From Corynebacterium jeikeium (lineage in GTDB: Bacteria; Actinomycetota; Actinomycetes; Mycobacteriales; Mycobacteriaceae), in assembly GCA_003955985.1 (NCBI GenBank), contig CP033784.1:496001-560000 (forward strand): DNA of 64,000 bases, given 5' to 3'. Below the pieces are notes generated by a model. The model made no database searches. It was not told the DNA's origin and saw only the letters and a program-made list of their open reading frames with translations. Below are positions 13,634-32,294 of this stretch, one piece after another (position 1 is the stretch's first letter; every line of letters starts with the position of its first letter). A program made the translations under genes and the position numbers.

Positions 13634-13690
13634 GGAACCGAATCGGGGTTTTTCGCGCCAAACAATATGACGGGTTTTTAACGCGGGAAG
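13634..13690 (+). promoter_or_regulatory. Conserved upstream block of esxBA, shared with the 27.4 kb operon
   Basis: GGAACCGAATC (13634-13644), four variable bases, TTTTTCGCGCC (13649-13659), one variable base and AACA (13661-13664) recur at exactly the same spacing at 27443-27473. A weaker second part (GTTTTT, then CGCGGG and AAG) follows in both. GGAAC with a downstream CG-rich element resembles an extracytoplasmic-function sigma promoter. In M. tuberculosis, SigM controls the ESX-4 genes esxT and esxU, so a SigM-like promoter is a reasonable reading. A repressor or activator site is the alternative. It lies 128 bases before the esxB start. Confidence 0.6.
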
Positions 13691-13761: not shown

Positions 13762-14088
13762 GTGGCAAACCTATTTGCAGCCGAATCAGATCAAATGACC
13801 ACTACCGCGGGGGACGTCGATGGCGTCAACTCGGAAGTACAGGGCGAGCTGGGGCGCATTCGAGGCGTCGTGGACGGTCTGGCGGGGGAATGGAAGGGCC
13901 AGGCTAAAGACAGCTTCGATGATCTGATGCTTCGTTGGGATGACGCAGCTATGCGTCTATCCAATGCGCTGACGGATATCGCGGATAACATCCGCGCAAA
14001 TTCCAGCAGCTTCGATGCGGGCGAGGACGAGGGGGCGTCGTCGTTCAAGCAGGTGGCAGCAGCGGGTGCGTCGTTGCTGAACCTCTAA
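13762..14088 (+). CDS. esxB: WXG100 protein, EsxB/CFP-10-like type VII substrate
   Basis: A 108-residue helical-hairpin protein of the WXG100 family: helix, turn with W44-K45-G46, helix. Members are secreted as heterodimers with a partner through EccC. After the second helix the sequence reads FDAGE (84-88), which fits the position of the YxxxD/E secretion signal but with Phe in place of Tyr. The C-terminal tail is about 20 residues longer than in CFP-10. The GTG start has AGGGGGAAA upstream, like eccB. It is followed by a partner gene, as expected. Confidence 0.93.
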   Translation: MANLFAAESDQMTTTAGDVDGVNSEVQGELGRIRGVVDGLAGEWKGQAKDSFDDLMLRWDDAAMRLSNALTDIADNIRANSSSFDAGEDEGASSFKQVAAAGASLLNL

Positions 14089-14161
14089 ACGTTTTATCGA
14101 ATCGCACAACCACAACACTGAATCACACAACACACATCACCTTTTGGGGAAAGGGTTCTTA

Positions 14162-14449
14162 ATGCAACCAATTAGGTACAGTTTTGGCGGCATCGACGGT
14201 GCTGCCGATGACATTCGGTCCACTTCTGGCACCATCAACGGGCTGCTCGGAGATTTGAAGAAGCGCATCGCGCCGATGGTCTCTACGTGGGAGGGTGACT
14301 CTTCGGATTCTTACCAGGAGGCTCAGCGTGAATGGGACACAGCAGCGGAGGAGCTCAATATGATTCTCACGACTATCGCGGATACGGTCAGCGCAGGTAG
14401 CCAGCGAATGGCGGATATTAACCGCCGCGCGGCAGCTAGCTGGGGATAG
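14162..14449 (+). CDS. esxA: WXG100 protein, EsxA/ESAT-6-like type VII substrate
   Basis: A 95-residue helical-hairpin protein with the W43-E44-G45 turn, ending at the second helix without a long tail. This is typical of the ESAT-6-like partner that dimerises with EsxB and lacks its own YxxxD/E signal. ATG at 14162 is preceded by GGGGAAAGG at 14147-14155; a TTG at 14144 is in frame but lies inside that sequence. A strong intrinsic terminator follows at 14581. The esxB-esxA pair lies immediately before rplM, as in the ESX-4 loci of mycobacteria. Confidence 0.92.
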   Translation: MQPIRYSFGGIDGAADDIRSTSGTINGLLGDLKKRIAPMVSTWEGDSSDSYQEAQREWDTAAEELNMILTTIADTVSAGSQRMADINRRAAASWG

Positions 14450-19743: not shown

Positions 19744-21087
19744 ATGGCACGTCTTTTCGGAACTGATGGCGTCCGCGGTTTGGCGAATAAGACTCTGACC
19801 GCACCGCTGGCAATGCGGCTGGGTGCTGCTGCGGCCACTGTGCTGACTAGCGGCACGAATCCGTCGGGGCGTCGTCCCCTGGCCATTGTTGGCCGCGATC
19901 CGCGTGTCTCCGGTGAGATGCTCGCCGCAGCGCTGTCTGCCGGCATGGCTTCCCAGGGCGTCGACGTTTTGCGTGTCGGCGTGCTGCCCACTCCGGCTGT
20001 CGCTTTCCTCACCGACGACTACGGTGCCGACATGGGTGTGATGATTTCGGCTTCTCACAACCCCATGCCGGACAACGGCATCAAGTTCTTCGCCGCGGGC
20101 GGCACCAAGCTTGACGACGCGGTGGAGAAGGAAATCGAACACGCTCTCCACAACCTGCCGGAGACCGGCCCCACGGGCACCGGAGTGGGGCGTGTCATCG
20201 AGGAGGCCCCAGACGGGCTCGACCGCTACCTGTTCCACCTCTCCCGTGCGGTCAGCACCAAGCTCGACGGCATTCGCGTCGTAGTGGATTGTGCAAATGG
20301 TGCTGCTTCGCAGGCCGCCCCCATGGCGTACGCGGCCGCCGGTGCCGACGTCGTCGCTATTCATGACAAGCCGAACTCCTACAACATCAACGACAACTGC
20401 GGTTCCACCCACATTGAGGTTTTGCGCGCGGCAGTGCTGGAGCACGGCGCGGATCTGGGTCTGGCTCACGATGGCGATGCCGACCGCTGCCTGGCTGTGG
20501 ACTCGCAGGGCAACATCGTCGATGGTGACCAAATCATGGCCATCCTGGCCGTCGCCATGAAGGAAGAGGGGCTACTGCACCACAACACGCTGGTGGCCAC
20601 TGTGATGAGTAACCTCGGCCTCAAGCTGGCGATGGAGGAAAACGATATCGCCCTGCGTACCACCAAGGTCGGCGACCGCTACGTGCTGGCAGATTTGAAC
20701 GCCGGCGGTTACTCGCTCGGCGGTGAGCAGTCGGGGCATGTGGTCATTCCGGATCACGCCACCACTGGTGACGGCACCCTCACCGGTCTGTACCTCATGG
20801 CGCGGATGGCACGCACCGGTAAGTCTCTGGCTGAGCTGGCCTCCGTAATGAAGGTGCTGCCGCAGACTCTTATCAACGTGCCGGTGTCCAACAAGGCCGC
20901 AATTCTGGAGTCTGATGAGGTCAAGGCCGCCATCGATGCAGCCGAGGAGAAGCTGGGTTCCACCGGTCGCGTGCTGTTGCGCCCGTCCGGCACCGAGGAG
21001 CTCTTCCGCGTCATGGTGGAGGCCGCCGATGCGGAATCGGCCCGCAAGATTGCCGGGGAGTTAGCTGCGGTTGTGGCCGCAGTCTAG
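19744..21087 (+). CDS. glmM: Phosphoglucosamine mutase
   Basis: GlmM converts glucosamine-6-phosphate to glucosamine-1-phosphate on the way to UDP-GlcNAc for peptidoglycan. The N-terminus [10 protein letters not shown], the phosphoserine loop ISASHNP (about residues 101-107), the metal-binding DGDADRC and the C-terminal phosphate-binding [12 protein letters not shown] are all present. At 447 aa it has normal length. AAGGAG lies upstream. The genes for the preceding step (glmS, at 30.4 kb) and for the whole mevalonate route follow; idi starts 16 bases after the stop. Confidence 0.97.
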
Positions 21088-21103
21088 AGTCAGGAGTGTG
21101 GAA

Positions 21104-21760
21104 ATGAATGACGCGCCAGAGGACATTAAAGCCCGCTTTGCCCCGGGTGAAGCCGACATCCAGGTAGAGGTGGTCGATCGTGACGGTCGGGTTCTCGGTA
21201 CCGTCGGCAAGCTTGAAGCACACGTTCCGCCGGGAATTTTGCACCGTGCTTTTTCTCTTTTCCTCTTCGATGAGCAGGGACGCATGCTGCTGCAGCGCCG
21301 TGCGGAGTCGAAGTATCACTCACCACTGCTACTGACGAATGCGACCTGCTCGCACCCACTGCCGGGGGAGCCGGTGGCCGATGCCGTTGAGCGTCGTGCG
21401 AAGGAAGAGCTCGGTGCGGATGTCTCCCAGTTGGAGGAAATCGGCATTGTTATCTACCAGGTCATCGATGATCGTTCGGGATTGGCGGAGCACGAGTACA
21501 ACCACGTGTACGCCGGCATCGTCGATCCGAAGTCGGTGGATATCAACCCCGATGAGGTCGATGAAGTGGTGTACGTGACTCCGCAGGAACTCGCAGAACG
21601 TCGCGCGAACGAACCGATGACGGAGTGGTTTAACCACGTCTGGGGTGTTGGGGCGGAGAAGTTCTCCAAGTACGGTTTCGACATTGCGGGTGTGCCGGGT
21701 ATCCATGGCCCAGCGGAGGCGCAGGCTGCCGCGCAGTCGGTTTCGGAAAAGGATGTGTAG
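21104..21760 (+). CDS. idi: Isopentenyl-diphosphate delta-isomerase, type 1 (Nudix)
   Basis: Interconverts IPP and DMAPP, an essential step when isoprenoids come from mevalonate. The type 1 features are visible: LLQRRAESKYHSPLLLTNATCSHP with the active-site Cys, PGEPVADAVERRAKEELG (Nudix-like helix), and EHEYNHVY with the metal-binding Glu. ATG at 21104 is chosen because CAGGAG lies seven bases upstream; longer in-frame starts overlap the ribosome-binding site. At 218 aa it is slightly long, with a C-terminal Ala-rich tail. It is the first gene of the mevalonate cluster and nearly touches the next kinase. Confidence 0.93.
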   Translation: MNDAPEDIKARFAPGEADIQVEVVDRDGRVLGTVGKLEAHVPPGILHRAFSLFLFDEQGRMLLQRRAESKYHSPLLLTNATCSHPLPGEPVADAVERRAKEELGADVSQLEEIGIVIYQVIDDRSGLAEHEYNHVYAGIVDPKSVDINPDEVDEVVYVTPQELAERRANEPMTEWFNHVWGVGAEKFSKYGFDIAGVPGIHGPAEAQAAAQSVSEKDV

Positions 21761-21764
21761 CTTC

Positions 21765-22790
21765 GTGACCAGCGTAGAAAACGCCAGCGTCGACGACTTT
21801 GGCCTCGACAAGTCCGAGGAATTGGAGACCGGGGAGTTCTATGCCCTGGCCAATGAACAGGGTGCCGCATTCGGTGAAGGCCATGCCAAGTCGATTTTGT
21901 TGGGTGAGCACTCTGTCGTCTACGGCAAGCCGGCTATCGCACTGCCGGTGACGTCGCTGCGCACGATGGCGTGGATTGACCGCGTGGAGGATTCTCCCGT
22001 CCTGTTTTCCATGGACGGCGAGGTCATCGACATCGACGAGCTGCCGGAGCGCTTTGCCTCCATCGCCGCTGCACTCCGCGCTGGCCTGCGCACCTTCGGT
22101 ATTCCCGAACGCGACCTGCTGGTTCGTCTCCGCTCCGGTATCCCACCCGCTGCAGGGCTGGGTGGTTCTGCCGCAGTGGCACATGCGCTTATCGACGCAG
22201 TGCGTGACCTCGCCGATGGCACTCTGACCGAGCGTCAGCGCTTTGACCTGGTGCAGGAAGCTGAGCGTCTGGCGCACGGTAACCCCTCTGGCCTGGATGC
22301 CACGGTTGCCCGCGCATCGCGTCCGGTTTACTTCAAGCAGGGTGAGTTCCATCCGCTGAAGGTGGCCAAGAAGATGTGGCTAGTGCTGGGGGATACCGGT
22401 GTGCGTGGTTCGACGTCGCTGGCCGTTGCCCGCGTGCGTGGTTTCGTCGATTCCCACCGAGTCCACGGCCAAGAGTTGCTGGACCACTTGGGGCAGCTGG
22501 CCGATGGCGCGGTGCACAACCTGGCCAAGGGCGATTTTGCCCGTCTGGGGCATCGCATGGACTCGGCGCAGGAAGCGCTAGAGGAACTAGGTGTTGGGCA
22601 TGAGTCCATCACCGATCTCGTCACTGCCGCCCGACTGGCAGGTGCCCACGGGGCAAAGCTCACTGGTGCCGGTTGCGGTGGCTGTGTGATGGCGCTGGCA
22701 GAGTCCGCCGATCACGCGGAACTGATTAGCCATGCCATGATGGGCGCCAATGCCGTTGCTACTTGGACTGTGGAGGTAAATCCCTCGTGA
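21765..22790 (+). CDS. mvk: Mevalonate kinase
   Basis: Phosphorylates mevalonate to 5-phosphomevalonate in the cytosol. It is a GHMP kinase: the N-terminal GEGHAKSILLGEHSVVYGKPAIALP motif is the mevalonate-kinase form. PPAAGLGGSAAVAHAL is the ATP-binding loop. The C-terminal GAKLTGAGCGGCVMAL is the third GHMP motif. GTG at 21765 gives 341 residues and sits eleven bases after AAAAGGA; ATG at 21753 inside the idi end is a possible alternative. It overlaps mvaD by four bases (GTGA), so the two are translationally coupled. With mvaD and the next kinase it forms the lower mevalonate pathway. Confidence 0.94.
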   Translation: MTSVENASVDDFGLDKSEELETGEFYALANEQGAAFGEGHAKSILLGEHSVVYGKPAIALPVTSLRTMAWIDRVEDSPVLFSMDGEVIDIDELPERFASIAAALRAGLRTFGIPERDLLVRLRSGIPPAAGLGGSAAVAHALIDAVRDLADGTLTERQRFDLVQEAERLAHGNPSGLDATVARASRPVYFKQGEFHPLKVAKKMWLVLGDTGVRGSTSLAVARVRGFVDSHRVHGQELLDHLGQLADGAVHNLAKGDFARLGHRMDSAQEALEELGVGHESITDLVTAARLAGAHGAKLTGAGCGGCVMALAESADHAELISHAMMGANAVATWTVEVNPS

Positions 22791-23764
22791 CCACGACCGC
22801 TACCGCCGTCGCTCATCCCAACATCGCCCTGATTAAATACTGGGGCAAGCGCGATGAGGCCGTGCAGCTACCGGCCACAGGTTCGCTGTCCCTTACTCTG
22901 GGCATCGCTCCGACGACGACCACGGTGTCGCTTATCGACGATCCCAGCGTCACCGCCGACTCGGGCACTCTGAACGGCCAGGAGATGGTGGGCAAGGACC
23001 TCTCCCGTGTCCAGAAGTTTTTGGATTTGGTCCGCGAGCGTGCGGGCAGCACTAGCTTCGCAGAGGTGACCAGCACCAACGAGATTCCGACGGGTGCGGG
23101 TCTGGCTTCGTCCGCGTCGGGTTTTGGCGCTCTCGCGCTGGCCGCGGCGAAGGCCTACGGCCTGGACTACACCCCGGAACAGCTCTCGGCTCTGGCCCGT
23201 CGCGGTTCGGGCTCGGCCTGTCGCTCTATTTTCGGCGGCCTCGTTGAGTGGCTGCCCGGCGATGACGATGCTTCCAGCCACGCAGTGGCTCTGCCGGATT
23301 CCGGCCTGGACCTCTCCCTGGTCGTGGCGGTTTTGGCCCCGGGGCGCAAGAAGATTGACAGCCGTGCCGCCATGCGTCGCACGGTCGAGACATCACCGTT
23401 CTTCCCGGCCTGGGTGGAGCAGGTGCCCCGCGATATCGAGGACATGAAGGCCGCCATCGCCGCTGCGGACTTCACGGCGGTCGGCGAGCTTGCCGAGGCC
23501 AACGCCATGCGCATGCACGCCACTATGCTGGGGGCTCTTCCTCCGGTGCGGTACTGGAATCCGGATTCGGTGGCGGCTCTCGATCTCGTCGCTACGCTGC
23601 GTGACGAGGGCACCGAGTGCTACGCCACCATGGATGCCGGGCCGAACGTGAAGGTGCTGTGCCGCAGCGGCGATGCCGAGACCATCGCGGATCGTTTCCG
23701 CGCAGAGTTCGAGGATATTGACGTGCTGGTTTCCGGCTCCGGCCCCGGCGCTTACCTGGTGTAG
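22787..23764 (+). CDS. mvaD: Diphosphomevalonate decarboxylase
   Basis: Converts 5-diphosphomevalonate to IPP with ATP hydrolysis and loss of CO2. The family-specific start AHPNIALIKYWGKRD is at residues 9-23. The ATP loop region reads PTGAGLASSASGFGALALA, and the ARRGSGSACRSIFGG motif with FGG and WLPG is diagnostic. At 325 aa the length is normal. The start is the GTG overlapping the mevalonate kinase stop. The position between the two mevalonate kinases matches the gene order known from streptococcal and Streptomyces mevalonate clusters. Confidence 0.96.
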   Translation: MTTTATAVAHPNIALIKYWGKRDEAVQLPATGSLSLTLGIAPTTTTVSLIDDPSVTADSGTLNGQEMVGKDLSRVQKFLDLVRERAGSTSFAEVTSTNEIPTGAGLASSASGFGALALAAAKAYGLDYTPEQLSALARRGSGSACRSIFGGLVEWLPGDDDASSHAVALPDSGLDLSLVVAVLAPGRKKIDSRAAMRRTVETSPFFPAWVEQVPRDIEDMKAAIAAADFTAVGELAEANAMRMHATMLGALPPVRYWNPDSVAALDLVATLRDEGTECYATMDAGPNVKVLCRSGDAETIADRFRAEFEDIDVLVSGSGPGAYLV

Positions 23765-23776
23765 CTGGGGGAGTAG

Positions 23777-24874
23777 TTGAGCAACGCTAAAGGCGGACCT
23801 ATCGAAGGCGAGTCCATCGGCCGTGGCTGCGGCAAGCTGTACCTCACTGGTGAGTATGCGGTGATGGATGTCGAGGGGCTGGCCGTCATCGCAGGAGTCG
23901 ACCGCTATGTGACAGTTCGGTGCCGCGATGCCGAACCATCGCAGCCGGTCTCTCGCGTGTACTCCAGCTATTACGGCCCGCAGGGGCGCGTCATTGATAT
24001 CGATGCACCAGATGACATCGCTACCCATACGATTTCCCTGGTCTATCGCATTGCTGCGGGCGAGTTGGAAAACACCCCAGAGCGCCCCATAAATATCGTC
24101 ATTGAATCAGACCTCGATGACGCCGACAGTGGTGCGAAGTATGGCCTGGGATCCTCCGGGGCTGTCGCTGTGGCTGTAACTCGTGCGCTGGGGACGCACC
24201 TGGGTCTGGAGCTGGATTCACTGGACGTGTACAAGATTGCGATGGTGGCCACGCTTCTGGCTGGTGCAGCTGGTTCCGGCGGCGATATCGCGTGCTCCGC
24301 GCACGGCGGGGTGGTGCTCTATCGCCGGCCGAATCCGACGGCGCTCGCAGAGCTCGTGGCGGCTGATCCTGTCGCTGCCGTGGCGGCACCGTGGCCGAAT
24401 CTTCGCATTGACGCCCGCACCGACCTCGGTGGGCTACAACTGTTGGTCGGCTGGACGGGCAGTCCGGTGAAGACGGACTCGCAGTTGAAGAAGGCCGGTG
24501 GCGCAGACCGTGATTTTGTGCGCGGGGTCTCGTCGATAAGCGAAAGACTCTGGCAGGCGCTTGCCGACGGCGACCACACCGCGGCGTTTGCCTGCCTGCG
24601 TGAGAATCGGACGCTGCTGCAGGACTATGAGCGTGAGCGTGCTGTATGCATCGAGACGGAGAAACTGAAAGCGCTCGCCGACATCGCCGATGGCGCGGGG
24701 GCCGCGGGCAAGAGCAGCGGCTCCGGTGGTGGTGACTGCGGAATCGCGCTGGTGGGAGTCTCAGATGGTGTCGATGCTGAGAGTTCGACCCGAGAGACTG
24801 CCGCGGACATCACCGCGCGCTGGCAAGCAGCTGGCATCCGGCCGTTGCCGCTGAAGCTGGCCGCTCAACTTTGA
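23777..24874 (+). CDS. mvaK2: Phosphomevalonate kinase
   Basis: Phosphorylates 5-phosphomevalonate to the diphosphate. GHMP-kinase features: an N-terminal GRGCGKLYLTGEYAVMDV motif, KYGLGSSGAVAVAVTRALG as the ATP loop, and GGDCGIALV near the C-terminus (GHMP motif 3). At 365 aa it matches bacterial phosphomevalonate kinases. The start is a TTG at 23777 with GGGGGAG just upstream; no better in-frame start exists, as the conserved motif begins by residue 15. It lies 12 bases after mvaD and 93 bases before the HMG-CoA reductase gene. Confidence 0.93.
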   Translation: MSNAKGGPIEGESIGRGCGKLYLTGEYAVMDVEGLAVIAGVDRYVTVRCRDAEPSQPVSRVYSSYYGPQGRVIDIDAPDDIATHTISLVYRIAAGELENTPERPINIVIESDLDDADSGAKYGLGSSGAVAVAVTRALGTHLGLELDSLDVYKIAMVATLLAGAAGSGGDIACSAHGGVVLYRRPNPTALAELVAADPVAAVAAPWPNLRIDARTDLGGLQLLVGWTGSPVKTDSQLKKAGGADRDFVRGVSSISERLWQALADGDHTAAFACLRENRTLLQDYERERAVCIETEKLKALADIADGAGAAGKSSGSGGGDCGIALVGVSDGVDAESSTRETAADITARWQAAGIRPLPLKLAAQL

Positions 24875-24967
24875 CCACAATTTTTAGACCGTAGAATTTA
24901 AGACAGCTGGAATTTACAGAAGCTGGGAACCGAAGCTGCATGCAGCTAGAAAGGGTCGCATAGGACA

Positions 24968-26023
24968 ATGGCTGAAAAGAGCTCGCACGACCTGGAATAT
25001 GCACACGTACCGCTGAGCTGGATTGGTCCGGTGCGCATTAGTGGCAACGTCATGAATGACGAGGTGAAGATTCCGCTGGCGACTTACGAGACCCCGCTGT
25101 GGCCGTCGTGTGGTCGCGGTGCGAAGGTCTCCCGCATGATCGAAGGTGGCATTACCTGCACTTTCGTCGGTGAGAAGATGACCCGATCGGTGATTTTCAC
25201 TCTCGACTCGGCAGCGGATGCCGTCATTGCGCGCGACAACATCCTGTCTCGTTATGACGAGCTGAAGAAGGTCGTGGAGTCCTCCTCGCGTTTTGCCAAG
25301 CTGGTAGATATTCACTTCCAGATCGCATCGCGTCTTCTCTTTGTCCGCTTTGACTTCTTCTCCGGTGATGCCTCGGGCCACAACATGGCCACGCTGGCGT
25401 CTGAGCGTTTGATGTCCTACCTGATGGAGCAGATGCCAGAGTTGGGCTATGGCTCCATCTCGGGCAACTACTGCACCGATAAGAAGACCTCCGCAGTCAA
25501 TGGCATTCTGGGCCGCGGTAAGTACGTAATCGCCGAGGCCGTCATTCCGGAGCCGGTTGTCCGCGAGCGTCTGCGCACAACTGCCAAGCGCCTGGCTGAG
25601 CTCAACGAACGCAAGAACCTCGTCGGCTCCATCATGGCCGGTTCGCTGCGCAGCGGTAATGCGCACTACGCCAATATGCTGCTGGGCTTTTACCTCGCTA
25701 CCGGTCAGGACGCTGCGAATATCGTCGAAGGCTCGCAGGGGCTGACGCAGGTAGAGGCGCTTGACGACGGCTCCGTGCGCTTTAGCTGCACCCTGCCACA
25801 TTTGATCGTCGGTTCCGTGGGCAACGGCAAGGGCTTGGACTTCGTGGAGAAGAATCTCACAGCGCTGGGCTGCAAGGAGGACCGTGAGCCGGGCGAGAAT
25901 GCCCGTCGTCTAGCAGCGTGCTGCGCGGCAATCGTCTGGTGTGGTGAGCTTTCCCTGCTCGCGGCACAGACGAACCCGGGGGAGCTGATGGAGGCGCACG
26001 TTTCTATCGAGCGTGCGAAGTAG
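24968..26023 (+). CDS. mvaA: HMG-CoA reductase, class I-like
   Basis: Reduces HMG-CoA to mevalonate, the committed step. The four catalytic residues can be placed: Glu59 (MIEGGI), Lys172 or Lys173 (NYCTDKKTSAVN), Asp248 (GQDAAN) and His344 near the C-terminus (MEAHVSIER). The dinucleotide-binding GDASGHNM is at 133-140. NYCTDKK and GRGKYVIAEAVIP are of the class I type found in archaea and streptomycetes, so NADPH use is likely. At 351 aa it is the compact soluble catalytic domain, without membrane anchor. ATG at 24968 is preceded by AGAAAGG. A 197-base gap before mvaS probably contains another promoter. Confidence 0.95.
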   Translation: MAEKSSHDLEYAHVPLSWIGPVRISGNVMNDEVKIPLATYETPLWPSCGRGAKVSRMIEGGITCTFVGEKMTRSVIFTLDSAADAVIARDNILSRYDELKKVVESSSRFAKLVDIHFQIASRLLFVRFDFFSGDASGHNMATLASERLMSYLMEQMPELGYGSISGNYCTDKKTSAVNGILGRGKYVIAEAVIPEPVVRERLRTTAKRLAELNERKNLVGSIMAGSLRSGNAHYANMLLGFYLATGQDAANIVEGSQGLTQVEALDDGSVRFSCTLPHLIVGSVGNGKGLDFVEKNLTALGCKEDREPGENARRLAACCAAIVWCGELSLLAAQTNPGELMEAHVSIERAK

Positions 26024-26220
26024 TGCTTTGCAACAATTCGCAAAACCTAAGACAAATCTCAGGTAAACGCGCTAGATTTCTGTAGTAGGCAATTAACATT
26101 TTGTGGGCAAAATCTCCCGTGGTCTGATGACTGCTCTGATGGTCGCTCTGATGACATGGGGGATGTTTCGTTGCCCGTTATTTCTTAAAAATCTGTAGAG
26201 GTAGTGAAGGCACGGTTTTG

Positions 26221-27411
26221 ATGACAACAAGCAATGTGACCCCGATCGGTATTGATGACATCGCCTTTGCGACGGGTTCGTACTGCATTGACCTCGCCGA
26301 TATTGCGCCCCGACTCGGAGCGGAACCGGCAAAGTACCACAAGGGCCTGGGGCAGGAACGCTCCAGCGTGGTTGCCTCTGATGAAGATCCGGTGACGATG
26401 GCCGCGGCCGCGGTGAAGAAGATCGTTGACCGCCACGGTATCGACGGCGTGCGCACCATCATGTTCGCCACTGAGACCGGTATCGACCAGTCGAAGGCCG
26501 CTGCTGTCTATGTCCACGAGCTGGTCGGTCTTGACCCGCACGCGCGATCTGTCGAGCTGAAGCAGGCTTGCTACTCCGGTACCGCGGCGCTGCAGTTCGC
26601 GTGCGCTTTGGTGGCCCGCAATCCGGAGGAGAAGGTCATCGTTGTCGCCTCCGACATTGCCCGCTATGACCTGGACTCCGCTGCGGAGCCGACCCAGGGC
26701 GCAGGTGCTGTAGCCATGCTGGTGACCGCTAATCCGCGCATCCTGGCTATCGATGCGGCTTCGGGCGTCTTTACCCGCGAAGTTATGGACTTCTGGCGGC
26801 CGAACCACCGCAGCCAGGCGTTGGTGGAGGGCAAGCTCTCTATTAGCGCTTACATTGACGCTGTTCAGGGTGCTTATGAGGACTACCGTGCCCGCGGCGG
26901 CGTGGACTTCAGCGAGATTGACTACTTCAGCTACCACCAGCCGTTTACCAAGATGGCCTACAAGGCGCACCGGCAGCTTTCGGCCAATAACGGTGTGGAG
27001 CTCACCGCAGAGGATGAGGCCCGCCAGCTCGGCCCAACCACTGAGTACAACCGCATCATCGGTAACTCCTACACCGCATCGGCCTACTTCGGCCTGCTCT
27101 CGCTGCTGGACACCGAGAAGGACCTGGCTGGTAAGAAGGTCGCTGTTGTCTCCTATGGTTCCGGCTCGGTTGCTGAGTTCCTCACCGGCAATGTGGTCGA
27201 GGGCTACGAGTCCCAGCTGCGCGCCGCAGATAATGCGCGTGAACTGGCTGAACGCGTGAAGCTCGATGATCCGACCTACTACCGCCACGCTCAGGTGACG
27301 CATGAAGATCCGGGTGAGTACTCCAACCTGGGAGACGACGCCCTGATTGGCACCGGCCCATTCAGCTTCACCGGTGTTGAGGGGTGTAAGCGCATCTACC
27401 GCGCTCGTTAG
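26221..27411 (+). CDS. mvaS: HMG-CoA synthase
   Basis: Condenses acetyl-CoA with acetoacetyl-CoA to HMG-CoA. The acetylated cysteine is Cys117 (LKQACYSGTAAL), the general base is Glu85 (ATETGIDQSK), and His about 239 sits in YFSYHQPFTKMAYKA. At 396 aa it has normal bacterial length, and GNSYTASAYFGLLSLL is the typical C-terminal block. The TTG three bases before the ATG is unlikely to be used. It is the last gene of the mevalonate cluster; no acetoacetyl-CoA thiolase is present in the window. The next gene downstream belongs to the unassigned three-gene operon, which has its own promoter block. Confidence 0.96.
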   Translation: MTTSNVTPIGIDDIAFATGSYCIDLADIAPRLGAEPAKYHKGLGQERSSVVASDEDPVTMAAAAVKKIVDRHGIDGVRTIMFATETGIDQSKAAAVYVHELVGLDPHARSVELKQACYSGTAALQFACALVARNPEEKVIVVASDIARYDLDSAAEPTQGAGAVAMLVTANPRILAIDAASGVFTREVMDFWRPNHRSQALVEGKLSISAYIDAVQGAYEDYRARGGVDFSEIDYFSYHQPFTKMAYKAHRQLSANNGVELTAEDEARQLGPTTEYNRIIGNSYTASAYFGLLSLLDTEKDLAGKKVAVVSYGSGSVAEFLTGNVVEGYESQLRAADNARELAERVKLDDPTYYRHAQVTHEDPGEYSNLGDDALIGTGPFSFTGVEGCKRIYRAR

Positions 27412-27442: not shown

Positions 27443-27500
27443 GGAACCGAATCCTCTTTTTTCGCGCCTAACAGTAATAAGAACTGTTTTTCGCGGGGAA
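27443..27500 (+). promoter_or_regulatory. Second copy of the esxBA upstream block
   Basis: GGAACCGAATC (27443-27453), four variable bases, TTTTTCGCGCC (27458-27468), one variable base and AACA (27470-27473) match 13634-13664 in sequence and spacing. GTTTTT, CGCGGG and GAAG follow in both. The distance to the start codon here is 69 bases. It begins 31 bases after the mvaS stop, so it marks the operon as independent of the mevalonate genes. Confidence 0.6.
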
Positions 27501-27511
27501 GGGGATTTTTC

Positions 27512-27847
27512 GTGTCCGCACGTTTTACTGGAGGCAGTGGCGGAGGCTTGCTGCACTTTTCGGAAGATGCAGTGACAGCGGCTGCCCGAGAGATCGAGCA
27601 GCGCGGCCGTGAAGGCCATGAGCGGTGGGGAAGCGCTCCTGATATTTCCGCAGCAGATTGTGGCCAGGGTTTTGCCGCCCAGGGGCGCCGTCTGCAGCAG
27701 GCGGCAGCGAGGCTGCGTGAGCACGGGCAATCGATGTACGCGGGACTTGGCAATCATGCTCCGGCAGTGCGGGAACAGTGGCGTGTCTTTGCAGGCTGTG
27801 ACAGCGCCGGGAGCGCCGACCTCGGTGGAATTGAGGTAGTGGACTGA
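27512..27847 (+). CDS. Small helical protein, candidate type VII secretion target (EspC/WXG100-like)
   Basis: A 111-residue protein with a Gly-rich start. A helix (about residues 16-40) leads to a turn containing W39-G40. A second long helix (about 54-92) and a short disordered tail follow. Size and helical-hairpin layout resemble the WXG100 and EspC-type (DUF2580) type VII targets. The tail begins with F93-A-G-C-D97, an F-x3-D like the F84-x3-E88 of EsxB. Two Cys are unusual for this class. The GTG start has GGGGAAGGGGATTTTTC upstream, nearly the same as the eccC start region. The stop overlaps the next start by one base. A chaperone or adaptor for the next protein is an alternative. Confidence 0.55.
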   Translation: MSARFTGGSGGGLLHFSEDAVTAAAREIEQRGREGHERWGSAPDISAADCGQGFAAQGRRLQQAAARLREHGQSMYAGLGNHAPAVREQWRVFAGCDSAGSADLGGIEVVD

Positions 27848-29160
27848 TGCCATGGGTTGCTCGAATTCTTCCGATATTGGTGCGTGTTATTGGCCGTGGA
27901 AGCCGTATTGGAGCCAAGCGCGGGGTTGGCGGCATCGGCAAGAATCTGCCCAAAGTCTTGGATAAGGTGCGACGCGCTGACGGCTGGAAGGGCAGCGCCC
28001 TGTCCAAGTTCTCTAACTCCGTGGGGTTGATAGCCTCCGCGATAACTATTGCTATGGCTTTCGATTGGGGCGGTTTGAAAGGCGATGCCGCCGACGCCGC
28101 CAAGGAGCGCTGCGATAAAGCTGCGCAGGACTGTGCGAATCAGGATGAGCAGTCCGCCAATGGCGCGCAGAGCGTCGGCGAGTGCGGCAAGAAAGTCGAC
28201 GAGGTCCTTGAGGATTGCGAGAAGCAGGCCGAAGATATGGCTGAGCAAACCGACGGCATCCTCTCTCAGTGCGAAGCGCTTGTCGACGATCCGGAGGTCG
28301 GCGCCGAAGCCGCACAAGTGGCCCAGCAGGTGTGTAACAGTCTCGTCGACTCCACTGGTCAGCTCTACGATGCGCGTAATAGTTGCATCGAGCAGTGTCT
28401 TGAGCAGGCAGCGTGTGACACTGAGGCCGCGGTGGTCGCCACCCCGCCGCAGCCTCCTACTGTTCCAGCCAGTTCGGGTGCTACCTCGGCGGCCTGTGCA
28501 GAGGTGGCTGAGTCTGGGAGTGGCGAAGGAGCTACTGTAACCGGTGGCAACGGTGCTACCGCTGGTGGAATTGGGGTCGTTGCCAACGTTGATATTGGGA
28601 TAGAGGCAGGCGTTGCTGCTGGAATATCCGTTGGAGGTGCCATTGGCGCTGCCGGGGCGGCCAGTATCGCTGGAATTGCGGGAGCTGTCGGGGTTGCAGG
28701 CAGTGTCGCGTCCTCACTGCTCAACTTAGACATGTGCACGGAGACGGAAGAGCCAGTGTGCGAACAGGCACCTGCGCCAGCACCAGCACCAGCACCAGCT
28801 CCTGCGCCGGAGGACTGTGTGCCGGAACCCGAACCAGAACCCAAGCCCGAACCTGAACCCAAGCCCGAACCTGAACCCAAGCCCGAACCTGAACCCGAGC
28901 CCGAACCTGAAAATGTTCCTGAACCGCCTCCTCCAGCTGAGAAACTAAAGCACTTGGGAATCGAGCTGCCACAGGAGACGCAAGCAGAACAGCGAGCGGA
29001 ACCGCAGCCAGAACCACAAGCAGAGCCGCAGCCAGCACCAGCCCAGGATTCGGCAGCATCAGTGCAGGAATCTGCTTCAGCTGTGCCCGAGCCCCCTGAG
29101 CAGCCCAACGCCCAGGAGCTTGTGGGCGCGGTCAATTCGCCAACGGCAGGTGAGTGGTAA
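27847..29160 (+). CDS. Ala/Cys-rich protein with glycine-rich hydrophobic segment and Pro-Glu/Lys repeat, unknown function
   Basis: I do not recognise this 437-residue protein. In order it has a basic amphipathic start (1-50) and a hydrophobic stretch (about 58-75). An acidic helical region with regularly spaced cysteines runs from 80 to 195. A Gly/Ala-rich hydrophobic segment of about 55 residues resembles a glycine zipper (240-295). Ala-Pro repeats and a PEPEPK-type repeat (about 310-355) precede a Gln/Glu/Ala-rich tail. I count 13 cysteines, which suggests disulfides outside the cytoplasm. There is no classical signal peptide. ATG at 27847 overlaps the previous stop (TGATG) and the stop overlaps the next start (TAATG). 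I infer a type VII-exported effector or surface protein. Confidence 0.6.
   Translation: MPWVARILPILVRVIGRGSRIGAKRGVGGIGKNLPKVLDKVRRADGWKGSALSKFSNSVGLIASAITIAMAFDWGGLKGDAADAAKERCDKAAQDCANQDEQSANGAQSVGECGKKVDEVLEDCEKQAEDMAEQTDGILSQCEALVDDPEVGAEAAQVAQQVCNSLVDSTGQLYDARNSCIEQCLEQAACDTEAAVVATPPQPPTVPASSGATSAACAEVAESGSGEGATVTGGNGATAGGIGVVANVDIGIEAGVAAGISVGGAIGAAGAASIAGIAGAVGVAGSVASSLLNLDMCTETEEPVCEQAPAPAPAPAPAPAPEDCVPEPEPEPKPEPEPKPEPEPKPEPEPEPEPENVPEPPPPAEKLKHLGIELPQETQAEQRAEPQPEPQAEPQPAPAQDSAASVQESASAVPEPPEQPNAQELVGAVNSPTAGEW
28837..28908 (+). repeat. Four tandem copies of an 18-base unit
   Basis: The unit GAACCCAAGCCCGAACCT is repeated at 28837, 28855 and 28873, and once more at 28891 with one change (AAG to GAG). 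It encodes E-P-K-P-E-P in frame. The identical synonymous codons point to recent expansion by slippage or unequal exchange, so the copy number probably differs between strains. Confidence 0.9.
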
Positions 29161-29441
29161 TGGGGAGTAAGCATGCCGCGAAATATGACCGGATTGGGCA
29201 GGCCTATTACGACGCTGCTGCAATGACTAGGCAGGAGTTCGATACGGCGGTACAGAGGGCACAGAAAGAATTGCAGGGTTTGGAGGAGCGTCGTAAAGCA
29301 CGCGAAATTAAGGAGAGGGAGGTGGCGGCGGGCGTCGAAAAGCAACAAAAAACCGCCCGACCGAAGGGAACCGTTACGCGGTTGTTCGGGCGGGCGGGGA
29401 AAGGGACGCCGACGGTGAAGTCGATTCGGGGCGTGTCCTGA
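29160..29441 (+). CDS. Small coiled-coil basic protein, third gene of the unassigned operon
   Basis: A 93-residue hydrophilic protein: a charged helix with coiled-coil character (about residues 20-62), then a basic tail. ATG at 29160 overlaps the preceding stop (TAATG), so it is translated with the 437-residue protein; the in-frame GTG at 29154 would lie inside that gene. The tail (about residues 65-78) is encoded by the stem-loop that serves as terminator for the gene on the opposite strand, so this part may be fixed by RNA structure rather than protein function. I recognise no family. An immunity or chaperone role for the operon is conceivable but unsupported. Confidence 0.55.
   Translation: MGSKHAAKYDRIGQAYYDAAAMTRQEFDTAVQRAQKELQGLEERRKAREIKEREVAAGVEKQQKTARPKGTVTRLFGRAGKGTPTVKSIRGVS
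29346..29393 (-). terminator. Intrinsic terminator of the hydrolase-like gene, inside the convergent coding region
   Basis: Read on the minus strand, CCGCCCGA pairs with TCGGGCGG, an inner stem AACCG/CGGTT strengthens it, and six T follow. It ends the gene at 29457-30308, yet lies within the last third of the small convergent gene. Confidence 0.8.
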
Positions 29442-29456: not shown

Positions 29457-30308
29457 CTACTTGCCGGGAATCAGCGAGTGCTCCGGGTTTTCCGGCAGCT
29501 CCTTGATGAGCCACTCCATGTCGCGGTTAGTTGTGCCCTTGATAGTGGCGGTCGGGTCTGCGAAATCTGAGTACTTCTTGTCGTCACCGACCGTGGCCAG
29601 CAGGAAGCCTGTGAGTGCGGCGCGCGCGACCTCCTGGTACTTCACCTTGGAGGAAGAGAAGCCCGCTAGACGACGGAGAAGAGTTGTTTCCGAGAAGCTG
29701 CCCTGGTCAGCCTTGTCTACTTCGCGGTAAACGACATCGCCCTTCCACTGAACAGCCAGGCGAGCCGGGTTGCCGCGATCGAGCCACTGATCCTCGCCAG
29801 GGGCCAGGACGAGGCCCGGGGCCGAGACATTAGTTGCAGCGGCGCTGGAGGAAGGCGCGGTAGTTGCGGGGAAGACGCAGCCAACGCCGGAGATGAGGTC
29901 GTGACCAGCAGCGGCGAGGACGGCTACACCCGCGCCCATGCCGTGGCCGGCAACGCCGAGTTTCTTCGGGTGGACGACGACCTTGCCCTCTCCGAGGCGG
30001 ACACCAGCGAGAATCTGGAGCGCTGTCTCCAAATCGTTGGCGAGACCACGGTGGTCTGCCACGATGCCATTTTCGGTGTCCGGAGCAGCGACCGCGATGC
30101 CCCACGAAGCTAGGTGACGCAGCGTGGCGTGGTACTCCTCAATCGGTGTGCGCCAATCGTGTGCGAAGGCGATACCGGGGATGCCATTGCCCTCGGCAGG
30201 CGTGTAGACCTTTCCCGGCAGGCCAGTAAAAGCGAGATCACCGACCATGACGCGGTGCGGTCCACGCTTGGAAAGATTAGATGTCAGAGTCTTCAAGTTG
30301 TCAGCCAC
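29457..30308 (-). CDS. Alpha/beta-hydrolase-fold protein lacking the nucleophilic serine
   Basis: About 283 residues with the fold of dienelactone-hydrolase or cutinase-like proteins: PGIAFAHDW after strand 3, then VAAPDTENG, and the nucleophile-elbow region GVAGHGMGAG. In that elbow the usual G-x-S-x-G reads G-H-G-M-G, so the catalytic serine is replaced by glycine; the bases confirm this. It is therefore likely to be non-catalytic, perhaps a binding or regulatory protein. The GTG at 30308 begins the conserved part and has a TATAGT upstream that could drive a leaderless transcript; an ATG at 30335 would add nine residues. It is divergent from glmS and closed by the terminator at 29346-29393. 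Confidence 0.75.
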   Translation of the reverse strand: MADNLKTLTSNLSKRGPHRVMVGDLAFTGLPGKVYTPAEGNGIPGIAFAHDWRTPIEEYHATLRHLASWGIAVAAPDTENGIVADHRGLANDLETALQILAGVRLGEGKVVVHPKKLGVAGHGMGAGVAVLAAAGHDLISGVGCVFPATTAPSSSAAATNVSAPGLVLAPGEDQWLDRGNPARLAVQWKGDVVYREVDKADQGSFSETTLLRRLAGFSSSKVKYQEVARAALTGFLLATVGDDKKYSDFADPTATIKGTTNRDMEWLIKELPENPEHSLIPGK

Positions 30309-30419
30309 AGTGAATAGCTTAACTATAAGGTGCATACCTTTGCTGAAAAAGTGCCAGGATGAGCGAGAATGTCTATTTCGTTATGACGATTTTCCGCTTC
30401 GCGGGTTATTCTGTAGGGC

Positions 30420-32294
30420 ATGTGTGGAATCGTTGGATATGTGGGCCATCAGCCCGCCCTGGATATTGCTGTCGATGCGCTACGACGCATGGAATACCGT
30501 GGCTATGACTCCGCGGGTGTTGCCATTGTCGACGATCAGGGGCATATCACTGTAGAGAAGAAGGCCGGTAAACTCGCCAACCTCGAGGCTGCCCTTGATG
30601 CGGATGGGCGCGACAAAATCACTGGAACCACCGGAATTGGGCACACCCGCTGGGCTACCCACGGTCGCCCAATTGATGAGAATGCCCACCCACACCAGTC
30701 CTATGACGGCAAGGTGGCTATCGTCCACAACGGCATTATCGAGAACTTTGCTCCGCTACGTCAGGAGCTGGAGGATGCCGGCATTGAGCTGAAGTCCGAA
30801 ACCGACTCCGAGGTCGCCGCGCACATGCTCGCCCGTGCCCTGGACGGTTCCGACGGCGGATCTACCGCTGGTGATTTCGAGGCCTCTGCGCTGTCCGTGC
30901 TCAACCGCCTCGAGGGTGCTTTTACGCTGCTGTTTACTCATGCAGACCACCCGGATCGCATCATCGCTGCTCGTCGCTCCACTCCGCTGATTGTCGGTGT
31001 GGGCGAAAACGAAATGTTCCTCGGCTCCGATGTTGCGGCTTTCATCGCGCACACCCGCGAGGCCGTGGAGCTGGGCCAGGACAACGTCGTCATCATCACC
31101 GCAGATGATTACCGCATCCTGGATTTCGCCGGCAATGAGCAGCAGGGTCGACCATTCACCATCGACTGGGATCTCGCCGCAGCCGAAAAGGGTGGCTATG
31201 ACTCCTTCATGATGAAGGAAATCCACGAGCAGGCTGCCGCCGTCCGCGATACGTTGGCCGGTCACCTCGTTGACGGCCGCATCGTTCTCGACGAGTCTCG
31301 CCTGAGTGACCAAGATCTGCGTGACATCGAGAAGGTCTTCGTCGTCGCCTGTGGTACCGCATACCACTCTGGTTTGTTGGCCAAGTACGCCATTGAGCAC
31401 TGGGTTCGTATCCCGGTCGAGATTGAGGTCGCTTCCGAGTTCCGCTACCGCGATCCGGTGCTGGACCGCCAGACGCTGGTGGTCGCTATTTCGCAGTCGG
31501 GCGAGACTGCTGACACCCTTGAGGCCGTGCGACACGCAAAGAGCCAGGGCGCCCGCGTGCTGGCTGTCTGTAATACCAACGGTGCACAGATTCCGCGTGA
31601 GTCTGACGCCGTGCTCTACACGCACGCCGGCCCGGAGATTGGTGTTGCTGCAACTAAGTCGTTCCTGGCGCAGGTAGCCGCAAACTACCTGGTCGGATTG
31701 GCTCTTGCCCAGGCACGCGGCACTAAGTACCCGGATGAGGTCACTCGCGAGTTTGAAGAGCTGGAGACCATCCCGGCACTGATTGACAAGGTCGTCGCTA
31801 AGGGCGATGAGTTCATCGACATGGCCAAGGAAATCGGTGCTATTCCGACGATGCTCTTCCTCGGCCGTCACGTTGGTTTCCCAGTCGCACTTGAGGGTGC
31901 GCTGAAGCTCAAGGAGCTTGCCTACATTCACGCAGAGGGGTTCCCGGCAGGCGAGCTCAAGCATGGCCCAATTGCACTCATCGAGGATGATCTTCCGGTC
32001 GTCGTCGTAGTGCCATCGCCGAAGGGGCGCGCCGTGCTGCACTCCAAGATTGTCTCCAACATCCAGGAGATTCGAGCCCGAGGTGCCAAGACCATCGTGA
32101 TTGCCGAAGAAGGGGATCAGTCGGTGGTTCCTTTTGCGAACTACCTGATTGAAATCCCGGAGACGTCCACGCTGCTCCAGCCGCTGTTGTCTACGATTCC
32201 GATGCAGTTCCTGGCAGCTGAGATCGCTCGCCAGTGCGGTAACGAGGACATCGATAAGCCGCGCAACCTGGCTAAGTCAGTCACCGTCGAGTAG
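30420..32294 (+). CDS. glmS: Glutamine-fructose-6-phosphate aminotransferase (isomerizing)
   Basis: Makes glucosamine-6-phosphate from fructose-6-phosphate and glutamine, the entry to UDP-GlcNAc. Cys2 (MCGIVGYVG) is the glutaminase nucleophile. EYRGYDSAGVAI and GIGHTRWATHG belong to the N-terminal domain. The two SIS domains carry SQSGETADTLEA and the later ELKHGPIALI, and the end KSVTVE is typical. At 624 aa it has normal length. A TTATTCT element ends seven or so bases before the ATG and no ribosome-binding site is seen, so translation may be leaderless. The 3' end overlaps the convergent HNH gene by 18 bases. Confidence 0.97.
   Translation: MCGIVGYVGHQPALDIAVDALRRMEYRGYDSAGVAIVDDQGHITVEKKAGKLANLEAALDADGRDKITGTTGIGHTRWATHGRPIDENAHPHQSYDGKVAIVHNGIIENFAPLRQELEDAGIELKSETDSEVAAHMLARALDGSDGGSTAGDFEASALSVLNRLEGAFTLLFTHADHPDRIIAARRSTPLIVGVGENEMFLGSDVAAFIAHTREAVELGQDNVVIITADDYRILDFAGNEQQGRPFTIDWDLAAAEKGGYDSFMMKEIHEQAAAVRDTLAGHLVDGRIVLDESRLSDQDLRDIEKVFVVACGTAYHSGLLAKYAIEHWVRIPVEIEVASEFRYRDPVLDRQTLVVAISQSGETADTLEAVRHAKSQGARVLAVCNTNGAQIPRESDAVLYTHAGPEIGVAATKSFLAQVAANYLVGLALAQARGTKYPDEVTREFEELETIPALIDKVVAKGDEFIDMAKEIGAIPTMLFLGRHVGFPVALEGALKLKELAYIHAEGFPAGELKHGPIALIEDDLPVVVVVPSPKGRAVLHSKIVSNIQEIRARGAKTIVIAEEGDQSVVPFANYLIEIPETSTLLQPLLSTIPMQFLAAEIARQCGNEDIDKPRNLAKSVTVE

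What the first reader, a model, noticed from the sequence alone, without database searches (positions are those of the whole stretch)
27512..29441. Candidate new type VII substrate module: three overlapping genes between the mevalonate cluster and glmS
Three genes overlap by single bases (TGATG, TAATG), so are made together. The first encodes a small helical protein, the second a 437-residue Cys/Gly/Pro-rich protein without a signal peptide, the third a small coiled-coil protein. The promoter block and the G-rich translation start match those of the type VII locus. The arrangement (small helical partner, large multi-domain protein, small accessory protein) resembles effector operons of other type VII systems, but none of the three proteins is one I recognise. 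ESX-4 substrates other than the EsxAB pair are poorly known.
Basis: inference. Interest (0 to 1): 0.83.

Follow-up and report, generated by a model that had tools for sequence, protein, structure and literature searches.

The report
ESX-4-linked export-type gene cassette
Three overlapping genes beside a bacterial secretion machine are the fast-evolving Corynebacterium version of a cassette found across the mycobacterial family, and they share a promoter-like element with the machine's own small cargo proteins, which makes them likely but unproven cargo of that machine.

Summary
Three overlapping genes lie at 27512-29441, between a mevalonate cluster inserted after glmM and a hydrolase plus glmS. 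No Pfam or NCBIfam model recognises them. The cassette is not local: it was found between glmM and glmS in 28 of 28 Corynebacterium regions, in 45 of 56 regions of other genera of the family, and as a pair after glmM in named mycobacteria, matching Rv3440c-Rv3439c by position (numbers partly recalled). Many gene 1 orthologues match the EspC family, and 66 of 67 mycobacterial copies carry the export motif YxxxD/E. Gene 2 orthologues have a WXG-type helical head, a proline-rich tail and a conserved C-terminus. A 26-bp ECF-like promoter element has three perfect copies in the genome: before the cassette, the ESX-4 esx pair and a small-protein plus NlpC/P60 operon. So "type VII substrate module" is well supported as a kind; export through ESX-4 is untested. 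Against it: one Corynebacterium without EccC keeps all three genes, the cassette stays at glmM-glmS where ESX-4 lies elsewhere, and Corynebacterium gene 1 lacks YxxxD/E. Rv3439c (Ppr2) reportedly binds the Rip1 PDZ domain, so a regulatory role remains open.

The parts
27443..27468 (+). promoter-like element GGAACCGAATC-N4-TTTTTCGCGCC (ECF-type -35 GGAAC, recalled), 43 bases before the start codon of gene 1
   Evidence: one of three perfect copies in the genome; present before the cassette in 7 of the 7 genomes that have any copy, out of 11 asked
27512..27847 (+). gene 1: 111-aa protein, divergent orthologue of EspC-family partners
   Evidence: profile comparison with non-Corynebacterium copies 96.7 percent, E 4.5e-10; no Pfam hit of its own
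27847..29160 (+). gene 2: 437-aa protein: N-terminal helical domain (residues 1 to about 200), Pro-rich tail, conserved C-terminus
   Evidence: profile comparison of N-terminal domain with other genera 94.0 percent, E 1.4e-7, 92.1 percent; own model poor overall (mean pLDDT 49.4)
29146..29157 (+). C-terminal AGEW of gene 2; 28 of 28 Corynebacterium copies end in W or WS
29154..29441 (+). gene 3: 95 aa (or 93 aa from 29160), small basic protein
   Evidence: homology to gene 3 of other genera not shown (10.0 percent)
13634..13659 (+). second perfect copy of the element, before the esx pair
13762..14088 (+). ESX-4 WXG100 protein
   Evidence: TIGR03930, 74.4 bits
14144..14449 (+). ESX-4 second WXG100 protein
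   Evidence: TIGR03930, 82.2 bits
4081..13559 (.). ESX-4 core: eccB +, mycP -, eccD -, eccC +, Rv3446c-type gene +
   Evidence: TIGR03919, TIGR03921, TIGR03920, TIGR03924/5, TIGR03931, all above cut-off; the label ESX-4 comes from gene order and recall
19744..21087 (+). glmM, upstream anchor of the conserved position
   Evidence: TIGR01455
21071..27411 (+). mevalonate-type cluster inserted between glmM and the cassette
   Evidence: gene content read, same genes in L013 and L051; HMG-CoA synthase confirmed by Pfam, the other names by eye
29457..30335 (-). dienelactone-hydrolase-like gene, downstream anchor (Rv3438 position, recalled)
   Evidence: PF01738 23.2 bits, cut-off 21; conserved place
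30420..32294 (+). glmS, downstream anchor
   Evidence: TIGR01135

Best explanation
The operon makes a type VII export-type pair plus an accessory protein. Gene 1 is a divergent EspC-like helical partner. Gene 2 is the large cargo: a WXG/PPE-like helical head that pairs with gene 1, a long flexible proline-rich tail, and a conserved C-terminal end that serves as a docking tag. Gene 3 is a small basic protein made last, probably a cytoplasmic helper. An ECF-type sigma factor switches the operon on together with the ESX-4 esx pair and a small-protein plus NlpC/P60 wall-hydrolase operon, and ESX-4 carries the pair into the cell envelope. Shown here: gene order, family-wide conserved place, EspC/WXG relationship of the orthologues, conserved C-terminus, shared promoter-like element. 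Inferred: promoter activity and sigma factor, pairing of genes 1 and 2, export through ESX-4, the docking role of the C-terminus, the role of gene 3.
For: EspC family in orthologues: 11 of 44 at E up to 0.05, best 2e-8; 42.2 and 23.0 bits against cut-off 23.5 in two named mycobacteria. WXG100 in gene 2 orthologues: 7 of 41. The Corynebacterium profiles join these families: gene 1 E 4.5e-10 (96.7 percent), gene 2 E 1.4e-7 (94.0 percent); as comparison, esxA and esxB profiles scored 47.3 and 0.3 percent against gene 1 and 1.5 and 3.9 percent against gene 2. YxxxD/E in the last 38 residues of gene 1 in 66 of 67 mycobacterial copies (shuffles: mean 10.8, maximum 18) and 13 of 46 in other genera (mean 2.1, maximum 6). 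The mycobacterial gene 2 head is modelled with pLDDT 92.5; Foldseek gives PPE41 chain 4w4k_B probability 0.99 and target TM 0.59, the highest of the 50 rows shown. Shared element: 3 perfect genome copies, before the esx pair, the cassette and a small-protein plus NlpC/P60 operon, control 0; of 32 hits in 7 genomes, 7 stand before the cassette, 6 before esxA, 7 before the NlpC/P60 operon, 7 before an HNH nuclease, 3 before a SAF-domain gene and 2 elsewhere. Gene 1 found in 158 of 161 and EccC in 159 of 161 Corynebacterium.
Confidence: 0.6

Rival explanations
1. The cassette belongs to envelope stress signalling: gene 2 is a ligand or adaptor for the PDZ domain of the site-2 protease Rip1 and tunes release of an ECF sigma factor; its link to ESX-4 is regulatory.
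For: A review passage states that Rv3439c (Ppr2) was found in a yeast two-hybrid screen with the Rip1 PDZ domain. Rip1 cuts the anti-SigM factor RsmA (review passage) and SigM activates esx-4 genes (passages). The own genome has an M50 protease with a PDZ domain. The C-terminus of Corynebacterium gene 2 is strongly conserved (28 of 28 end in W or WS), as a C-terminal PDZ ligand would be. The cassette survives loss of EccC in G258.
Against: Mycobacterial copies mostly end in G plus Q, E or G, not a classical hydrophobic PDZ ligand (recalled). Rip1 PDZ domains are taken to be extracytoplasmic (recalled for Rip1; stated for RseP), so gene 2 would still need export without a Sec signal. The EspC and WXG relationship is not explained.
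Confidence: 0.15
2. The proteins are structural or assembly parts of the ESX-4 machine (pore, chaperone or scaffold) rather than cargo.
For: Near-universal company of ESX-4 (gene 1 in 158 of 161, EccC in 159 of 161) and a common promoter-like element with the esx pair.
Against: Fast sequence change and gene 2 lengths from 186 to 847 aa; genus g19 has ESX-4 without it at the places read.
Confidence: 0.12
3. The cassette serves amino-sugar or cell wall synthesis with glmM and glmS and is unrelated to secretion.
For: Fixed place between glmM and glmS even where ESX-4 lies elsewhere.
Against: Own promoter-like element shared with type VII genes; EspC and WXG matches of orthologues; no credible cassette in g19 and in 13 of 14 regions outside the family, although glmM is there.
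Confidence: 0.08

Closest known systems
Rv3440c-Rv3439c of M. tuberculosis and their mycobacterial orthologues (Ppr2 = Rv3439c)
   Same: Place after glmM (Rv3441c is GlmM, search listing of PMC3414508): glmM lies in 65 of the 70 named mycobacterial loci and esxA in 35 of 70 (the loci reach about 6 kb each side or less). Small EspC-type protein plus Pro-rich protein of about 450 aa with a conserved C-terminus.
   Different: No third gene was called in the two mycobacterial regions L078 and L091 and none was sought in the 70 loci; C-terminus PCEIAADELPQ[AV]G instead of [AS]GxW; too far for a direct profile match. The equation with the Rv numbers rests on numbering and recall; no M. tuberculosis sequence was fetched.
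EspA-EspC-EspD substrate operon of ESX-1 (recalled)
   Same: Small EspC protein, large partner, small accessory protein in one operon.
   Different: Linked to ESX-4; no comparison with EspA was run; gene order differs (recalled).
PE/PPE and EspB-type substrates
   Same: All-helical head with a WXG turn in the orthologues, Pro-rich tail; Foldseek and VIA rows for PPE41 and PPE15.
   Different: No PPE Pfam match; structural matches tied with BAR domains; partner is EspC-like, not PE.
ExsI (Cgl0579) of C. glutamicum
   Same: WXG100 substrate of the single C. glutamicum ESX locus, not detected in the supernatant of an eccD deletion (PMC12607788: section 7, passages).
   Different: Corresponds by description to the esx genes at 13762-14449, not to the cassette; the passages seen do not mention genes after glmM, and glmM does not occur in its text.

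Membership tests
EspC family (PF10824) for gene 1 | Pfam model match of the window protein | tested here: not met
   0 families; hence not filed as a member, only as a divergent orthologue
EspC family (PF10824) for gene 1 | Pfam match of orthologues at the same place | tested here: met
   11 of 44 at E up to 0.05; L160 42.2 bits, L144 23.0 bits, cut-off 23.5
EspC family (PF10824) for gene 1 | C-terminal YxxxD/E | tested here: not met
   Corynebacterium 1 of 29 (one of the 29, L014, is a doubtful gene call); mycobacteria 66 of 67; other genera 13 of 46
WXG100/PPE-type domain for gene 2 | Pfam WXG100 or PPE match of the window protein | tested here: not met
   only a low-complexity hit; W74-G-G76 lies near the expected turn but does not fall on the aligned W in the profile alignment
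WXG100/PPE-type domain for gene 2 | helical head with WXG turn in orthologues | tested here: met
   WXG100 in 7 of 41 at E up to 0.01; mycobacterial model H57-91, W92, H95-148, pLDDT 92.5
WXG100/PPE-type domain for gene 2 | PPE fold | tested here: inconclusive
ESX-4 substrate | secretion lost without EccC/EccD | not testable with these tools
   needs an experiment
ESX-4 substrate | co-occurrence with EccC | tested here: inconclusive
   gene 1 in 158 of 161, EccC in 159 of 161; G258 has the cassette without EccC; g19 has EccC without a cassette near glmM or ESX-4
ESX-4 substrate | co-regulation with the esx pair | tested here: inconclusive
   perfect shared element in the own genome, by sequence only; both sites at up to 3 mismatches in 6 of the 7 genomes with any copy, out of 11 asked; looser pattern at only 5 of 28 cassettes across Corynebacterium; no expression data

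The most novel reading that the evidence does not exclude
Probability: 0.08. Interest if true: 0.88.

Novelty: new variant of a known kind. Interest (0 to 1): 0.6.

Why it matters
ESX-4 is regarded as the ancestral ESX system (stated in PMC12607788, passage), and a 2025 paper still says that ESX-4 substrates beyond the esx pair remain to be identified (PMC11791044 passages). A conserved EspC-plus-large-protein cassette in its neighbourhood, under the same promoter-like element as the esx pair, is a concrete candidate that can be tested in laboratory Corynebacterium. The same element also marks a linked wall hydrolase and a nuclease, which points at what the system does in the envelope.

Tried and rejected
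Single-sequence searches found few and close relatives plus low-complexity proline-rich hits; the place between glmM and glmS, not sequence, revealed the family. One search hits outside the family (L009, L011) were not after glmM and were dropped. One search compared two alignments that both held the window protein and is discounted; one search repeats it without shared sequences. Gene 3: no demonstrable homology between Corynebacterium and other genera. The idea that the gene 2 C-terminus copies the EsxB C-terminus (both have a late W in Corynebacterium) was looked at and dropped, since it does not hold in other genera. The model of the window's own gene 2 is poor (mean pLDDT 49.4) and was not searched. 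Absence of other folds is no evidence.

Literature: one search lists all six held papers that name Rv3439c or Rv3440c; I saw passages of three and only the listing of the other three. None of the listings and passages seen ties either gene to ESX-4; only an open-licence library was searched. Two SigM papers looked up by id are not held; the original Rip1 two-hybrid paper was not looked up.

Rows dropped: glmM was matched in 40 of 41 relatives; I took regions of 38, leaving out the own genome and G036 (contig end). In the family draw it was matched in 90 of 91; I took 60. Of these 98 regions the script proposed a cassette in 85. I set aside 11 picks by hand (L038, L040, L045, L050, L067, L081, L082, L095, L097, L101, L105); one search shows a plausible pair in L081, L095 and L101 all the same. 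That leaves 74: 28 of 28 Corynebacterium regions, 45 of 56 other regions of the family, 1 of 14 outside it. Among the 28, the gene 1 pick of L014 is doubtful (its genome G013 is one of three without a gene 1 profile hit), and the third gene is cut or missing at the region end in L013 and L051. L064, L066 and L073 (short g29 versions) were left out of most alignments. The mycobacterial set was found by gene 2 itself, so its 70 loci say nothing on frequency; 4 of 66 complete frames lack the C-terminal motif (L140, L148, L150, L177), apparently frame-shifted, and were only described.

Full report
What is there. Three overlapping plus-strand genes at 27512-29441 were confirmed. Gene 3 may start at the GTG at 29154, as 11 of 27 Corynebacterium copies were called with the same 7-base overlap. 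None of the three proteins matches Pfam or NCBIfam beyond weak or compositional hits below cut-off. Upstream in the window lie an ESX locus (EccB, mycosin, EccD, EccC, the Rv3446c-type protein and two WXG100 proteins, all above cut-off; ESX-4 by gene order, recalled), rplM, rpsI, an acyltransferase and another gene (names by eye), glmM and a mevalonate-type cluster; downstream a hydrolase on the other strand and glmS.

The place is conserved. Anchoring on glmM in 38 related genomes and 60 more, from 30 genera of the family, showed the same small gene, large gene and, mostly, small third gene between glmM and the hydrolase or glmS: 28 of 28 Corynebacterium regions, 45 of 56 other family regions, 1 of 14 outside the family, with 11 picks set aside by hand. 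In the window and in L013 and L051 the mevalonate cluster separates glmM from the cassette. A scan of named genomes with two mycobacterial large proteins gave 70 Mycobacterium and Mycolicibacterium loci; gene 1 was called in 67, glmM matched in 65, rplM and rpsI in 63, esxA in 35 of the 70, many of which are cut by their length. Because Rv3441c is GlmM (listing), Rv3440c and Rv3439c are by number the corresponding genes; that step is numbering plus recall.

What the proteins are. The window proteins are too diverged for family models, but their positional orthologues are not. Gene 1: PF10824 EspC in 11 of 44 (best E 2e-8) and WXG100 in 6 of 44 (best only 0.0055); 42.2 bits against a cut-off of 23.5 in M. 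kyorinense, 23.0 in M. gordonae. The Corynebacterium profile joins the other-genera profile at 96.7 percent, E 4.5e-10, with no shared sequences; against esxA it reaches 47.3 percent, against esxB 0.3. YxxxD/E is found in the last 38 residues of gene 1 in 66 of 67 mycobacterial, 13 of 46 other and only 1 of 29 Corynebacterium copies. Gene 2: WXG100 in 7 of 41; Corynebacterium against other genera 94.0 percent, E 1.4e-7 or 92.1 percent; other genera against mycobacteria 99.8 percent; the direct Corynebacterium-mycobacteria comparison gives 3.9 percent, no better than the esxB comparison. The mycobacterial head is modelled at pLDDT 92.5 as long helices with the WXG turn at 92-94. Among the 50 Foldseek rows shown PPE41 chain 4w4k_B has the highest target TM-score (0.59, probability 0.99, E 0.38), but other PPE41 chains reach only 0.31-0.41, and by Z PPE41 is tied with BAR domains, so a PPE fold is plausible and not proved. 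The last residues of gene 2 are strongly conserved: W or WS in 28 of 28 Corynebacterium copies, an end like AGPL or AGDR in 23 of 43 other copies, PCEIAADELPQ[AV]G-like in 62 of 66 complete mycobacterial frames.

Co-regulation. The element GGAACCGAATC-N4-TTTTTCGCGCC stands before the esx pair and the cassette. The whole own genome has three perfect copies and two with two mismatches, the reversed control none. The third perfect copy precedes a 134-aa protein (no family match) and a 348-aa NlpC/P60 protein whose genes overlap by four bases, laid out like the cassette; the two weaker copies precede a 213-aa HNH nuclease and a 204-aa SAF-domain protein, each with nine bases between element and start codon. 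Of ten other Corynebacterium genomes asked, chosen as the nearest by EccC score, six have copies and four have none; of all 32 hits in seven genomes 30 stand before these five gene sets. Across 28 Corynebacterium regions a looser pattern is found at 5 of 28 cassettes and 8 of 26 esx genes (shuffled expectation 0.76 and 0.52), at 0 of 28 glmM, 0 of 26 rplM and 2 of 19 glmS, so the element is clear in the window's clade and not shown elsewhere. GGAAC is the -35 type of ECF sigma factors such as SigM (recalled); the sigma factor here is unknown, and promoter activity was not tested.

Company of ESX-4. EccC is found in 159 of 161 Corynebacterium and 90 of 91 family genomes; gene 1 in 158 of 161. 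Three kinds of exception count against a strict link. G258 has no EccC, and tblastn over the 34 kb read around the place shows only an eccB piece, yet genes 1, 2 (276 aa, ending EAGQW) and 3 (88 aa) are intact. G212 also fails the EccC search, but its region holds an eccC piece and one N, so it is unclear. Genus g19 has EccC away from glmM in four of five genomes and no cassette beside glmM (5 regions) or beside ESX-4 (4 regions). In genomes of g33, g23 and g29 EccC lies on another contig or megabases from glmM while a cassette, a short version in g29, stays. Since both are nearly universal, co-occurrence is weak evidence either way.

Reading. The simplest account is a type VII substrate pair with a helper, switched on with the ESX-4 esx pair. 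The main rival comes from the literature: a review states that Rv3439c, as Ppr2, was found with the PDZ domain of Rip1 in a two-hybrid screen (one passage seen). The own genome has such a protease with a PDZ domain. Rip1 acts on the anti-sigma factor of SigM, and SigM raises esx-4 expression. The two readings can be joined, as set out in the novel case, but nothing here tests that.

Limits. Gene calls in the regions are by script, with starts chosen by rule. Export, pairing and binding are inferences.

Noticed in passing
own genome G000:C1:584988 (minus), L231:3387-4834 minus, outside the window: A two-gene operon (134 aa plus 348 aa NlpC/P60) under the same perfect element: a possible further type VII wall-hydrolase substrate pair.
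   Followed up: partly
L202:853-1491 minus; found before the same element in 7 of 7 genomes with any copy: HNH/GmrSD_C nuclease of 213 aa with a hydrophobic start (by eye secreted), start codon nine bases after the element, suggesting a leaderless transcript.
   Followed up: partly
L203:1536-2147: SAF-domain protein (PF08666) with the element nine bases before its start codon; in three of the seven genomes.
   Followed up: no
window 21071-27411: Mevalonate-type cluster inserted between glmM and the cassette, seen also in L013 and L051 and not in the other Corynebacterium regions compared.
   Followed up: no
L112 (G258): A Corynebacterium without EccC in which only an eccB piece of ESX-4 was found: a natural test case for ESX-4-dependent genes.
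   Followed up: partly
L037 (G037): Outside the family, ESX genes before glmM and, after it, a 107/847/175 aa set and a second 113/789 aa pair at the same place.
   Followed up: no
L148 (M. lepraemurium): Gene 2 frame stops after 179 aa and gene 1 was not found: apparently decayed; described only.
   Followed up: no
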